From NCBI GenBank assembly GCA_017649745.1, contig JAGCGE010000368.1, positions 1 to 6,332 on the forward strand: DNA of 6,332 nt, given 5' to 3'. The position numbers were made by a program, and so were the translations under genes. Position 1 is the first letter of the stretch; the number at the start of each line of letters is the position of its first letter. The notes below the pieces were generated by a model that saw only the letters and a program-made list of their open reading frames with translations, had not been told where the DNA came from and did not search any database. This stretch comes from Clostridiales bacterium. Its GTDB lineage: Bacteria > Bacillota_A > Clostridia > Saccharofermentanales > Saccharofermentanaceae. Below, piece by piece: positions 1 to 5,638 of this stretch.

Positions 1-52
1 ACATACTGTAACAACTTACCAATTGCAGAGATCACAAGTGGTTTACCGTTGA

Positions 53-58
53 AAGGAG
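53..58 (+). promoter_or_regulatory. Ribosome binding site deciding the polymerase start
   Basis: AAGGAG lies 8 bases before GTG 67, which supports GTG as the start rather than the in-frame TTG at 49, which sits 5' of this site. An out-of-frame ATG at 65-67 is followed at once by TGA (ATGTGA) and overlaps the GTG. The 14 bases at 50-63 (TGAAAGGAGACAAA) recur exactly at 3046-3059 before the membrane protein gene. The polymerase frame is open back to base 1, so a start upstream of the window cannot be fully excluded. Confidence 0.7.
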
Positions 59-66
59 ACAAAGAT

Positions 67-1881
67 GTGATAAATTTTGACGGTTTGGTAAACGAGAAAC
101 AGATCAGGACGATGATCAAGAAAAATCTCGAAAAGGGTTATCATCCTGGTACAAAGCCGAGTGTAGATTTCATTAAAAAGATATTGGACGACGCGTATGA
201 ATCCAATATTAAGTATGATGTAAGCGATCTTCGAACGGCGGTTGTAACGTTTGCCGCAGGCAGCACTCATCACCCACAAGAATGCTTGAAGATTGTGAGC
301 AATATGCATTTCAAATCTCAAGAGATCTTGGACGATGAGAAGGATTTATATCCTGAGCAGATTGATCCGCCAGACCCTACGCCGGTATTTTATGATGTGG
401 AGGTATTTCCTAATCTGTTCCTGATTAATTGGCAGAAGCTTCCTGACGATTTATTTAATGAAATCATGGAAGAAATACGTAGCATGCCGAAGATATTTGC
501 AAGTCAGGAAAAAGCGGATGAGTATCGCCACGAGATCATAAGAAATGGTGTTGCACGAAATCCGGAACCCATGCATCGTATGATTAATCCGACGCCGAAA
601 GAGGTTGAGGATTTGATGCGGCATAAGCTTATAGGTTTTAACTGTCGCAGATATGACAACCACATGCTCTATGCTCGTATGATGGGATATTCCGAGAAAC
701 AGTTGTACAATCTGTCTCAAAGGATTATCGCCAAGAATGAAAAGAACGCTTTCTTTGGTGAGGCGTATAACATCAGTCACACTGATATTTATGACTACGC
801 ATCAAAGAAACAGTCACTCAAGAAATGGGAAATTGAATTAGGTCTTAGACATCTTGAGTTGGGTCTTCCTTGGGATAAACCTGTACCGGAAGAATTATGG
901 GGAAGGGTATCAGAATATTGTGATAACGACGTTATCAGTACAATATGCACTTGGATAGAAACCCAACCCGATTTTATAGCGAGGGAGATTCTTGCTGATC
1001 TGGCTGGCGGAATTGTGAATGATACTACCAATAGTCTCACTACGAGATTGATATTCGGTAATAATAAGAAACCTAAGCTTAACTATCGTTTCCTTGGCGA
1101 CAAACCTGCTGGAAAGAGCTTCACTCATGTTGAAGTTGAGGAGTATGCATCGGGTAAGACAGATAAGAAACCGACAGGAACTGTATGGTTCCCTGGTTAT
1201 GAGTTCGAATTTGTTAACAAAACTCCGGTAAGCAGATACAGAGGATACGAGGTAGGCGAAGGCGGAAGAGTTTATGCTAATCCAGGCTCATATGGCAATG
1301 CTGAAACATGGGATGTGGCGAGTCAGCATCCGCATAGCGCTATAGCAGAAACAGCATTTGGAGAATACACTGATATTTTTACAGAGCTGGTTGATGCAAG
1401 AGTCGATATTAAGCATAAAGATTTTGAATCCGCCAAGAAGAGATTCGGTGGTAAACTTGCTAAGTATCTTGACGATCCGACTGTTGCAAAGAACCTTGCA
1501 CAGGCGCTTAAGATTGCAATCAATTCAGTATATGGTCTCACTAGTGCTAAGTTCCAAAACGCATTCCGTGATGATCGTAACATTGATAATTTCATTGCAA
1601 AGCGTGGTGCTCTATTCATGGTTGATCTACAGCTCGCTGTTGAAGCACTCGGATACAAAGTTATACACATTAAGACAGATTCCATCAAGATTCATCATCC
1701 TGACGACTTCATTCGTACATTTGTTAAGAAATTTGGCGAATGCTACGGTTACACATTTGAGTTGGAAGATGCATGGGATCGTATCTGTCTTGTAAACGAT
1801 GCGGTATTCATTGATCACACCGAAGAAGGTTGGAAAGCTACCGGAGCAGAATTCCAGCAGCCCTATGTATTTAAAACCTGA
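67..1881 (+). CDS. Phage family B DNA polymerase, main part, ends at in-frame TGA
   Basis: This is a replicative DNA polymerase with 3'-5' proofreading, 604 residues from GTG 67 to the TGA. Exonuclease motifs are visible: Exo I as YDVEVF (D110, E112), Exo II as NCRRYD (N192, D197) and Exo III as YCDND (Y284, D288). Polymerase motif A is DVASQHPHS (D416), motif B is KIAINSVYG (K482 to G490) and motif C is KTDS (D538). The HPHS form of motif A and KTDS in place of DTDS are, from memory, typical of the phage branch of family B. About 105 residues of unrecognised sequence precede Exo I. The protein stops soon after a WKATGAEFQ stretch, before the C-terminal thumb-like part that I expect in this family. 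That part continues in the same frame after the stop. Together they would make about 772 residues, a normal length. The product is cytoplasmic and should copy the phage genome. Confidence 0.93.
   Translation: MINFDGLVNEKQIRTMIKKNLEKGYHPGTKPSVDFIKKILDDAYESNIKYDVSDLRTAVVTFAAGSTHHPQECLKIVSNMHFKSQEILDDEKDLYPEQIDPPDPTPVFYDVEVFPNLFLINWQKLPDDLFNEIMEEIRSMPKIFASQEKADEYRHEIIRNGVARNPEPMHRMINPTPKEVEDLMRHKLIGFNCRRYDNHMLYARMMGYSEKQLYNLSQRIIAKNEKNAFFGEAYNISHTDIYDYASKKQSLKKWEIELGLRHLELGLPWDKPVPEELWGRVSEYCDNDVISTICTWIETQPDFIAREILADLAGGIVNDTTNSLTTRLIFGNNKKPKLNYRFLGDKPAGKSFTHVEVEEYASGKTDKKPTGTVWFPGYEFEFVNKTPVSRYRGYEVGEGGRVYANPGSYGNAETWDVASQHPHSAIAETAFGEYTDIFTELVDARVDIKHKDFESAKKRFGGKLAKYLDDPTVAKNLAQALKIAINSVYGLTSAKFQNAFRDDRNIDNFIAKRGALFMVDLQLAVEALGYKVIHIKTDSIKIHHPDDFIRTFVKKFGECYGYTFELEDAWDRICLVNDAVFIDHTEEGWKATGAEFQQPYVFKT
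1879..1881 (+). other. In-frame TGA inside the DNA polymerase gene
   Basis: The codons run TTT AAA ACC TGA TTC ACC CAC GAA GAG TTG with no frame change, and the downstream frame stays open to TAA at 2383-2385. The downstream residues look like the normal C-terminal continuation of the polymerase. TGA appears to be an ordinary stop elsewhere in the window: it forms ATGA stop-start overlaps at 4650-4653 and 4898-4901, and all nine Trp codons in the upstream polymerase part are TGG. A single-base nonsense change (from TTA, TTG via a neighbour, or TGG), a sequencing error, or readthrough would each explain it. Confidence 0.85.
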
Positions 1882-1896
1882 TTCACCCACGAAGAG

Positions 1897-2385
1897 TTGT
1901 CTTTTAATGATTATTGTGAGACGAAGTCCGTATCCAAGGGTGCGATTTATCTCAGCGATCACGAGGTATCTAACAAAGTTTCCAAAGACGAAGATACTGA
2001 AGTGGTTGCAGACATGGTCTACGAAGAGCCTAAAGAGGACACCAGTGTTCACTTCATAGGAAGAGTTGGTCGTTTCTGTCCAATGAAAGAAGGCACTCCT
2101 GGTGCTGGATATTTGTACAGAGTGGACAACGATAAGTACTATGCCGTGTCCGGAACAAAGGGATACCTCTGGATGGAATCGGAGATGGTCAAGAATCTCG
2201 GTAAGGAAGATGACATTGATATTTCATACTATGAAAAGATGGCTAAAGATGCGTTGAATGATTTGGTCGTGTATGGTAATTACATCGAATTCCTCGACTT
2301 GTCTAAACCGTATGAGTACGAGTATGAAGAACCTTTTATGAACAAACCGGTGGATAAAGTTCCACTGGAGTTGCCATTTAAATAA
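1897..2385 (+). CDS. C-terminal part of the DNA polymerase, downstream of the in-frame TGA
   Basis: This 162-residue stretch lies in the same frame as the upstream polymerase, five sense codons after the TGA. It reads like the conserved end of phage family B polymerases: ETKSVSKGAIYL, then FIGRVGRFCPMKEGTPGAGYL, then KYYAVSGTKGYLWMESEMV, then KEDDIDISYYEKMAKDA, and an acidic and proline-rich tail. From memory these blocks occur at the C-terminus of uninterrupted homologues. The only start codon near the TGA is TTG 1897, whose upstream GAAGAG touches it with no spacer, and the first in-frame ATG is at 2014. Independent initiation therefore looks poor, and the segment is either read through from the upstream part or untranslated. 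It contains no catalytic motif of its own. If both parts were made separately they would have to reassemble. Confidence 0.8.
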   Translation: MSFNDYCETKSVSKGAIYLSDHEVSNKVSKDEDTEVVADMVYEEPKEDTSVHFIGRVGRFCPMKEGTPGAGYLYRVDNDKYYAVSGTKGYLWMESEMVKNLGKEDDIDISYYEKMAKDALNDLVVYGNYIEFLDLSKPYEYEYEEPFMNKPVDKVPLELPFK

Positions 2386-3343: not shown

Positions 3344-3812
3344 TATTCTTTGCGGTTGCATGCCTGTCGAGTATACTGATAAAGGTGTGATTGTTCACTC
3401 TAGAGCTTCTTATGAAAATCGTTTGATATTATCGGACGACGAATGGGATTTGCTGGAACGTATAGCCATTGCAGAGGGCGGAAACCAAGGCGTTAAAGGT
3501 CAAGCCCTTATTATGCGAGTTGTGATTAATCGTTGGCAATCCGGTAGATATGGAGAAACTCTACGGGAAGTGATATTTGCACCCAATCAGTTTTATACGG
3601 CAGGCATGTATCGTTCTGATCTTCGCTCTGTCCTGGATAGCGATATAACTCCAGGACAACGGAGACAGATATTAGATGCACGAAATGCGAGAGCATGGGT
3701 TGAATATGGTTGGGACGAATCTGAAGGCGCTTTATATTTTTGCGCTGATGGATGGAATTATTATGGTGATGAGCACTTGTTTAAATACGGTGGTCATTGG
3801 TTTAGTAAGTGA
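3294..3812 (+). CDS. SleB-like cell wall hydrolase, probable lipoprotein
   Basis: From ATG 3294 this is a 172-residue secreted peptidoglycan hydrolase of the SleB / Hydrolase_2 type. Residues 1-21 form a signal peptide, with MKK and then a hydrophobic core. They end in L19-C-G-C22, which resembles a lipobox, so C22 could be lipidated and hold the enzyme on the outer face of the membrane. The SleB-like domain runs from about residue 46 to the end. IAIAEGGNQGVKGQALIMRV contains the expected catalytic Glu (E61); VIFAPNQF, ALYFCADGW and the closing GGHWFS match the family pattern. The first 50 bases overlap the membrane protein gene out of frame. In-frame ATG 3264 would add ten mostly basic residues. 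It ends TGA TAT TAG, a near-tandem double stop. It could be a secreted lysis enzyme or a cell-surface remodelling protein; a spore germination role is unlikely in this context. Confidence 0.85.
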   Translation: MKKILTMISILMIFSANILCGCMPVEYTDKGVIVHSRASYENRLILSDDEWDLLERIAIAEGGNQGVKGQALIMRVVINRWQSGRYGETLREVIFAPNQFYTAGMYRSDLRSVLDSDITPGQRRQILDARNARAWVEYGWDESEGALYFCADGWNYYGDEHLFKYGGHWFSK

Positions 3813-4392: not shown

Positions 4393-4653
4393 ATGAAGAA
4401 ACAAATTGACATGCACATACGAATCGAGCCCGAATTTCATGCATGCTTAAAAGAAATTGCGAGGCAACAGAACACAACCATGACTAATGTTATCTGCAGT
4501 TATATTCTGGATACGGTCATGAAAGATAAAAACGGTAAGATTACCGACGGCGAAAGCTGGATTAACGAGTATAAAAAGAGATATGAAGTAGGAAAACTTT
4601 GGAGAGTTTGCACTATAGATGAGATACGAAAAGAGAAGGAGGAAACAGAATGA
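4393..4653 (+). CDS. Ribbon-helix-helix-like small regulator
   Basis: The 86-residue protein starts at ATG 4393; AGGAGG at 4375-4380 lies 12 bases upstream, a long but usable spacer. Residues 4-11 (QIDMHIRI) form a strand with alternating hydrophobic residues. Helix EPEFHACLKEIARQQ and then TTMTNVICSYILDTVM follow. This strand-helix-turn-helix order is that of Arc/MetJ ribbon-helix-helix proteins, which dimerise and insert the paired strands into the DNA major groove. The second half (about residues 45-86) is charged and unrecognised, perhaps an effector or oligomerisation tail. As the first gene after the hairpin region it may repress its own unit. The stop TGA overlaps the next start as ATGA. 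The fold assignment is by pattern only, and a toxin-antitoxin role has no support because the next gene is not a recognisable toxin. Confidence 0.65.
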   Translation: MKKQIDMHIRIEPEFHACLKEIARQQNTTMTNVICSYILDTVMKDKNGKITDGESWINEYKKRYEVGKLWRVCTIDEIRKEKEETE

Positions 4654-4901
4654 TTAATTCTTTATGGGAACTGGTCAAACACAAAAAAGAACTCAACTTG
4701 GAGTGCTCACCATTATACAAAGTAACAATCGATCTCAATCAGGTTGATTCATATGAAAGCAGTGAGTATGTATTTGATCATGTTGTCGATGTCATTTTTG
4801 ATGATTCGTGTATATGTTTGGCAATGGCAGATGGATGCTGCTCATATTTTCGTGCTGAGCGCGTTATTAACTGGATCGCGGAAAGGGAGGTAGACGAATG
4901 A
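4650..4901 (+). CDS. Small hypothetical phage protein
   Basis: The 83-residue protein starts at ATG 4650, overlapping the previous stop as ATGA, with AAGGAGG at 4636-4642. I do not recognise a family. The core from about residue 23 to 68 (YKVTIDLNQVDSYESS, then VVDVIFDDSCICLAMADG) looks like beta strands. The end, YFRAERVINWIAEREVDE, looks helical. There are four Cys residues (C19, and C54, C56 and others near the middle) but no regular Cys pair. It ends in another ATGA overlap, so it is coupled to both neighbours. The coupling and spacing make it a real gene; its role is unknown. Confidence 0.75.
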   Translation: MINSLWELVKHKKELNLECSPLYKVTIDLNQVDSYESSEYVFDHVVDVIFDDSCICLAMADGCCSYFRAERVINWIAEREVDE

Positions 4902-5638
4902 GCATGAAAATGGTTTGCAACCGGTGCAATAAGGTTAAGGAAGACGGGGAATGCTTCAATCGTGTTCGATATATATGTGGCGAACCAGAGCTATTGAATG
5001 AGTATGATCTTTGTCCAGAATGCTCTAAGCTATTCGGTATATTTATGAATGGCGGCGAAGTAGAAGAAGATCGCTATAAGGATTCTAAACCATGTGCTGT
5101 TGTAATTCATAAGCTTGCTAACGGTCATTACGCTATCGAGAATGCGCCTAATGAGAAAAAGAATCATTGCGCTACTTGTGCATATCAATGGGACCCTGAT
5201 AAATGTCCGAGAGTAAAGGAAACGCCCGGTACCATTAGTTGCGAGAATGATGCAGAGGCTTGCGACAAATGGTCAGCGGTTCGCGTTGAAGAAGATCCGC
5301 ATGTCTGTGAGACTTGTACACACAGATTGGAATCTGCTTCGGAAGTTAACTCGCCTTGTTACGCCTGTGGTAAAGAAATCGAGGATAACTGGGAACCTGC
5401 CGGTGAATCAATCAACAAGGAAGAGTCAGATCTCTCAGTCAAGACGCATACCAATGCCGCAGGAGTAACTGTTCCAGATAGTGATCCTTGGAGATCGTCT
5501 GAAGATCACATTTGCAGTACTTGCGCATACGAGTTCCGTAAAGGTTATCTTGAACCTTGTAAAAGTTGTGAAGTGCATAACAATTGGAAACCCGCTATTG
5601 CTGAGGAGGAAACAAATGAACAGAGCAGCGAGACGTAA
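4898..5638 (+). CDS. Multi-module Cys-rich (zinc-binding) protein
   Basis: The 246-residue protein starts at ATG 4898 in an ATGA overlap, with AGGGAGG at 4884-4890. It carries four Cys modules. An N-terminal zinc ribbon uses C7-x2-C10 and C39-x2-C42. Three tandem modules then follow a C-x2-C, spacer, Cys, W pattern: C91/C94 with C115, C122 and W125; C137/C140 with C154/C157 and W165; C206/C209 with C221/C224 and W230. The last two share PC-x2-C followed by NWxPA. Single modules of this kind are, from memory, common in phage proteins of unknown function, so three in a row point to internal duplication. The linkers are acidic and probably disordered. There is no catalytic motif, signal peptide or membrane segment. 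A scaffold or nucleic-acid/protein adaptor is a guess. The end overlaps the next gene by 23 bases. Confidence 0.85.
   Translation: MSMKMVCNRCNKVKEDGECFNRVRYICGEPELLNEYDLCPECSKLFGIFMNGGEVEEDRYKDSKPCAVVIHKLANGHYAIENAPNEKKNHCATCAYQWDPDKCPRVKETPGTISCENDAEACDKWSAVRVEEDPHVCETCTHRLESASEVNSPCYACGKEIEDNWEPAGESINKEESDLSVKTHTNAAGVTVPDSDPWRSSEDHICSTCAYEFRKGYLEPCKSCEVHNNWKPAIAEEETNEQSSET

What the first reader, a model, noticed from the sequence alone, without database searches (positions are those of the whole stretch)
1879..1881. In-frame TGA splits an otherwise intact phage DNA polymerase
An essential-looking gene has all exonuclease and polymerase motifs before a single TGA, and the conserved C-terminus continues in the same frame directly after it. 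There is no frameshift, no other decay and no good restart site. TGA looks like a normal stop elsewhere (two ATGA overlaps), so whole-genome recoding seems unlikely. The remaining options are stop readthrough giving two polymerase forms, a suppressor tRNA encoded elsewhere, a recent nonsense mutation in a defective prophage, or a base-call error.
Basis: partly seen in the sequence, partly recalled or inferred. Interest (0 to 1): 0.7.

Follow-up and report, generated by a model that had tools for sequence, protein, structure and literature searches.

The report
Private nonsense codon in phage polymerase
One phage contig carries a stop codon inside its DNA polymerase gene where the relatives compared carry an ordinary amino-acid codon, so this is most likely a one-off mutation or a sequence error and not a new way of reading the code.

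Summary
In detail: bases 1879-1881 are an in-frame TGA inside a family B phage DNA polymerase. The piece before it matches PHROG 4210 to profile position 1158 and the piece after it from 1160, so the TGA fills one column. It is neither a natural gene boundary nor a conserved recoding site in what I compared. Of 163 related DNA loci, 161 could be read at the site; all 161 have a sense codon and an open frame through it. Of 259 fetched proteins, 247 could be scored and have a sense residue; the only one found to end there is the window's own. Tryptophan was not seen there. 50 of 156 relatives end their polymerase with TGA, and the window's genes hold 32 TGG codons against one in-frame TGA. No opal suppressor tRNA was identified and no unusual RNA structure follows, but the phage's own genome is not held. 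Most likely it is a private nonsense change: a defective or minority variant, or a base-call/assembly error. At face value it removes the thumb-side domain. Reads would separate the two; none are held. Low interest.

The parts
1..1878 (+). upstream piece of a phage family B DNA polymerase (exonuclease and palm/fingers motifs); 5' end cut off by the contig edge
   Evidence: open frame; PHROG 4210 E 1.3e-236; tblastn to 256 phage records
1879..1881 (+). in-frame TGA; one profile column, sense codon in all 161 readable related loci
1882..2385 (+). downstream piece of the same polymerase in the same frame (thumb-side C-terminal domain, inferred), stop TAA
   Evidence: PHROG 4210 E 3.8e-33, profile 1160-1291; tblastn to 227 phage records
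2404..2970 (+). putative phage single-strand DNA binding / annealing protein, the next gene; open
   Evidence: PF24083 E 6.4e-10; phrog_4787 E 5.3e-14; tblastn match in 52 of 163 loci

Best explanation
The TGA is a private nonsense codon: a change of a codon that the comparable relatives read as an amino acid, seen in this one contig only. Either it is a real change in a defective or minority phage genome, or it is a base-call or assembly error. I lean slightly to a real variant (about 0.5 against 0.4) but reads are needed. If real, translation ends before the C-terminal thumb-side domain and the product is expected to be an impaired or dead polymerase. Shown: position, homology of both pieces, sense codon in relatives, TGA as a normal stop in the group. 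Inferred: loss of function, the thumb assignment, and its being recent.
For: Pieces A and B flank exactly one profile column. 161 of 163 loci are readable at the site (L001 and L004 are the same contig); 161 of 161 have a sense codon and an open frame through it. 247 of 259 fetched proteins have a sense residue there, 11 could not be scored, 1 (the window's own, P0001) ends there; 245 of the 247 have exactly one residue between the pieces and in 2 the second piece was not found. Three full-length relatives, 87, 86 and 83% identical over piece A, are uninterrupted. Three annotated phage records (contig89, 29632, FP_oengus) have one gene running on past the site by about 113-153 residues. The other window genes are open; the 5 of 10 with relatives among the loci match over most of their length. 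Both pieces look constrained against L001 (NG86 dN, dS: 0.17, 3.48 in A; 0.23, 1.78 in B; dS saturated), as expected if any loss is recent. A predicted structure of an intact relative puts the site in the helix at residues 563-571, before a C-terminal part that is ordered to about residue 687, in a model matching family B polymerases.
Against: No reads, so mutation and error stay unresolved. The piece after the TGA is still well kept, which functional readthrough would also predict. The P0001 cluster has 3 member sequences on 1 contig that I could not inspect. Of the 23 C-terminal proteins, 11 begin near or after the site or lack a matching upstream part; they may be contig fragments, but copies broken elsewhere are not excluded.
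Confidence: 0.9

Rival explanations
1. Base-call or assembly error (one half of the best explanation, stated alone): the phage population carries a sense codon and the contig's consensus is wrong at this codon.
For: Short 6332-base contig; exactly one codon is affected in an otherwise open gene; relatives are intact.
Against: Nothing else in the contig looks badly called: the downstream genes are open.
Confidence: 0.4
2. Occasional or programmed readthrough of this TGA gives a short and a long polymerase.
For: The frame after the TGA is open and conserved; no frameshift.
Against: No stop at this site in 161 of 161 readable relatives; RNA after the TGA folds no better than shuffles (z -0.10, 81 of 200 shuffles as good).
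Confidence: 0.05
3. TGA is reassigned, or suppressed by a phage tRNA, in this genome.
For: TGA-to-Trp phages have been predicted (passages of PMC11210395); this phage's full genome is not held, so a tRNA elsewhere is not excluded.
Against: 32 TGG codons in the window's genes against 1 in-frame TGA; no Trp at the site among 161 loci and 247 proteins; three window genes end in TGA, two in ATGA overlaps; 50 of 156 relatives end the polymerase with TGA; no UCA tRNA identified (one tRNA match left without an anticodon).
Confidence: 0.03
4. Selenocysteine at the TGA.
For: 2 of 247 relatives have cysteine at the site.
Against: The other 245 have other residues; no Rfam family reached its gathering score in the window and no unusual fold follows the TGA.
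Confidence: 0.01

Closest known systems
PHROG 4210 phage DNA polymerases (as in Arthrobacter phage Qui and Faecalibacterium phage FP_oengus)
   Same: Both pieces match, in order and in register. Qui is listed in both tblastn tables; FP_oengus is listed for piece A and its genus is counted for piece B.
   Different: The window's copy has an in-frame TGA; in Qui both matches lie in one annotated gene, and FP_oengus has one gene of 4014 bases there.
Phages with TGA read as tryptophan (translation table 4), PMC11210395 (passages seen)
   Same: An in-frame TGA inside a coding frame.
   Different: Only one such codon, no Trp seen in homologues, TGA in use as a normal stop, no suppressor tRNA identified.
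crAss-like phages with TAG read as glutamine, PMC9523058 (abstract seen)
   Same: A stop codon inside a phage gene.
   Different: Other codon; there metaproteomic data support the recoding, here nothing does.

Membership tests
phage family B DNA polymerase, PHROG 4210 | profile match over exonuclease, palm and C-terminal parts | tested here: met
TGA-recoded phage (table 4) | many in-frame TGA codons | tested here: not met
   1 in-frame TGA, 32 TGG in the window's genes
TGA-recoded phage (table 4) | Trp in homologues at the TGA position | tested here: not met
   0 of 161 readable loci, 0 of 247 scored proteins
TGA-recoded phage (table 4) | TGA avoided as a stop | tested here: not met
   three window genes end in TGA, two in ATGA overlaps
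TGA-recoded phage (table 4) | phage-encoded UCA suppressor tRNA | tested here: inconclusive
   none in the window or L001-L003; one Rfam tRNA match in 7 relatives' records, anticodon not resolved; one tRNA-Leu in 12 loci; own genome not held
programmed stop readthrough | stop codon conserved at the site in relatives | tested here: not met
   0 of 161 readable loci
programmed stop readthrough | stimulating structure after the stop | tested here: inconclusive
   no excess stability, z -0.10 over 102 nt; not every readthrough signal is a stable hairpin
selenoprotein | Cys or Sec in homologues at the TGA | tested here: not met
   Cys in 2 of 247

The most novel reading that the evidence does not exclude
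This phage reads its one polymerase TGA at a low rate, using host leakiness or a tRNA elsewhere in its genome, so that full-length polymerase is made sparingly and replication is throttled.
Probability: 0.04. Interest if true: 0.6.

Novelty: already known. Interest (0 to 1): 0.1.

Why it matters
Mostly as a caution. A single in-frame stop in a short contig, even in an essential-looking gene, should be checked against relatives before recoding or readthrough is proposed. If the phage did make both forms it would be a simple case of translational dosing of a replicative polymerase, but the comparative evidence goes against that.

Tried and rejected
Natural split gene: not supported. Among the 248 proteins whose upstream part could be scored, only the window's own ends at the site. 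Twenty-nine fewer phage records matched piece B than piece A (256 and 227). I checked two whose rows were listed for piece A, contig89 and 29632: one annotated gene runs on past the site by about 122 and 113 residues. MT838938.1 has no annotation and was not followed.

Not resolved: 11 of the 23 C-terminal proteins have no scorable upstream part. P0127 begins 5 residues before the site and by projection has tyrosine there. Six others (P0128, P0129, P0131, P0132, P0137, P0139) project to a sense residue; of these P0128 and P0132 have unlike N-terminal parts. Four (P0123, P0124, P0135, P0141) begin after the site. Their DNA was not reached.

Decay test: piece B is faster on the window's branch (0.182 against 0.075 for A; whole-tree lengths 3.232 and 2.166). 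Some intact relatives show such ratios too (P0159 0.403 and 0.116, P0002 0.632 and 0.219), and Tajima-type counts against P0163 disagree by outgroup (Fisher p 0.0006 with P0164, 0.81 with P0173, 0.49 with P0176, 0.10 with P0172). An earlier tree with more distant loci gave the window 0.458 (B) and 0.244 (A), with intact L008 at a similar ratio. Deviations at columns conserved in 95% of 143 sequences: 8 of 209 in A and 2 of 29 in B, reached or exceeded by 12 and 17 of the 142 others. A first count at 97% was distorted by the cut-off start of piece A. The faster piece B would fit some relaxed constraint after the stop, but I count the test as inconclusive. One of three dN/dS methods failed for piece A.

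RNA structure after the TGA, Rfam families at gathering score, tRNAs in the window: nothing. Exact 39-base pattern around the TGA in viral contigs: no match. Megablast of the window against phage records: no match. Paper searches gave listings that I did not use further.

Limits of the counts: the locus scans kept the best 80 of 509 viral and 80 of 128 genome relatives, and the large protein tables list the best 120 of 4347 and of 7994. Many proteins are near-duplicates, so counts are not independent events. Loci L142 and L157 could not be read at the site.

Full report
What is there. The window appears to be a whole 6332-base contig (the cluster of its own protein, P0001, lists one contig of 6332 bases), and no larger genome is held for it. 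Frame 1 is open from the left edge to a TGA at 1879-1881 and then open again from 1882 to a TAA at 2383-2385. Both pieces match PHROG 4210, a phage DNA polymerase family. The first stretch ends at profile position 1158 and the second begins at 1160, so the TGA sits in one profile column with no missing or extra residue. Separate tblastn searches of the two pieces found 256 and 227 phage records. In Arthrobacter phage Qui the two matches are in one annotated gene, ending at base 63157 and starting at 63161. In Siphovirus contig89, Siphovirus 29632 and Faecalibacterium phage FP_oengus one gene runs on past the site by about 122, 113 and 153 residues (from the gene ends).

Relatives at the site. 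I fetched 163 loci. Two do not cover the site; 161 do, and all 161 have a sense codon there and an open frame through it (L001 and L004 are one contig). The polymerase stop could be seen in 156 of them: 95 TAA, 50 TGA and 11 TAG. Of 259 fetched proteins, 247 could be scored at the site and have a sense residue; none is tryptophan and 2 are cysteine. Eleven could not be scored from the upstream side, and one, the window's own P0001, ends there. Three full-length relatives are closer than any locus: 87, 86 and 83% identical over piece A (P0163, P0164, P0173), and all are uninterrupted. So the stop is private to this contig among what was compared. The lists are capped and partly redundant, and the 11 unscored C-terminal proteins stay open, as said under Tried and rejected.

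Recoding. Polymerase piece A has 9 TGG codons and piece B plus the genes downstream have 23, against one in-frame TGA. Three downstream genes end in TGA, two in ATGA overlaps; reading on would add 1 codon (hydrolase), 23 (4393-4653) and 1 (4650-4901) before the next stop. The window has no tRNA. Among relatives, L001-L003 have none, one of 12 further loci has a tRNA-Leu, and one of seven virus records, which may be fragments, has an Rfam tRNA match whose anticodon ARAGORN did not resolve (the control rang in 14 of 14 genomes). PMC11210395 (passages seen) reports that 11 of 73 phages predicted to use table 4 encode a UCA suppressor tRNA, so absence of a tRNA alone would not be decisive. It is the lack of tryptophan in homologues and the normal use of TGA as a stop that argue against recoding.

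Readthrough. Nothing after the TGA folds unusually (z -0.10), and the site is not conserved as a stop. The first start codon after it, TTG at 1897, has no spaced ribosome-binding sequence (sequence). Both pieces show constraint against L001. Rate tests between the pieces lean to a faster second piece in the window with one outgroup but not with three others, and I take them as inconclusive. That fits a recent change or an error, but does not exclude a phage that still makes some full-length enzyme.

Verdict. A private nonsense codon, by mutation or by sequence error, in one phage contig. Intact copies exist in relatives. The feature is ordinary. Reads at the site would decide between the two ordinary options.

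Noticed in passing
L065, near bases 5557-5617: Another copy of the gene whose N-terminal and polymerase parts lie in different frames (frame 2, then frame 1), the only such case among 145 loci whose upstream frame could be judged (144 long, 1 not; 16 more reach the locus edge). Two genes, a frameshift or an error; not resolved.
   Followed up: partly
P0127, P0128, P0132 and eight further C-terminal proteins: C-terminal polymerase pieces that begin near or after this same region or carry unlike N-terminal parts; P0132 has the Pfam label PF00091. Possibly contig fragments, chimeras or split genes.
   Followed up: partly
window 3360-3812: A cell wall hydrolase domain gene (PF07486, E 1.6e-13) sits just after the replication genes; tblastn finds a match in 40 of 163 loci.
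   Followed up: no
window 4898-5638: A 246-aa cysteine-rich protein with repeated CxxC-type blocks (read from the translation), no Pfam match above cut-off, weak PHROG matches only and no match among the 163 loci.
   Followed up: no
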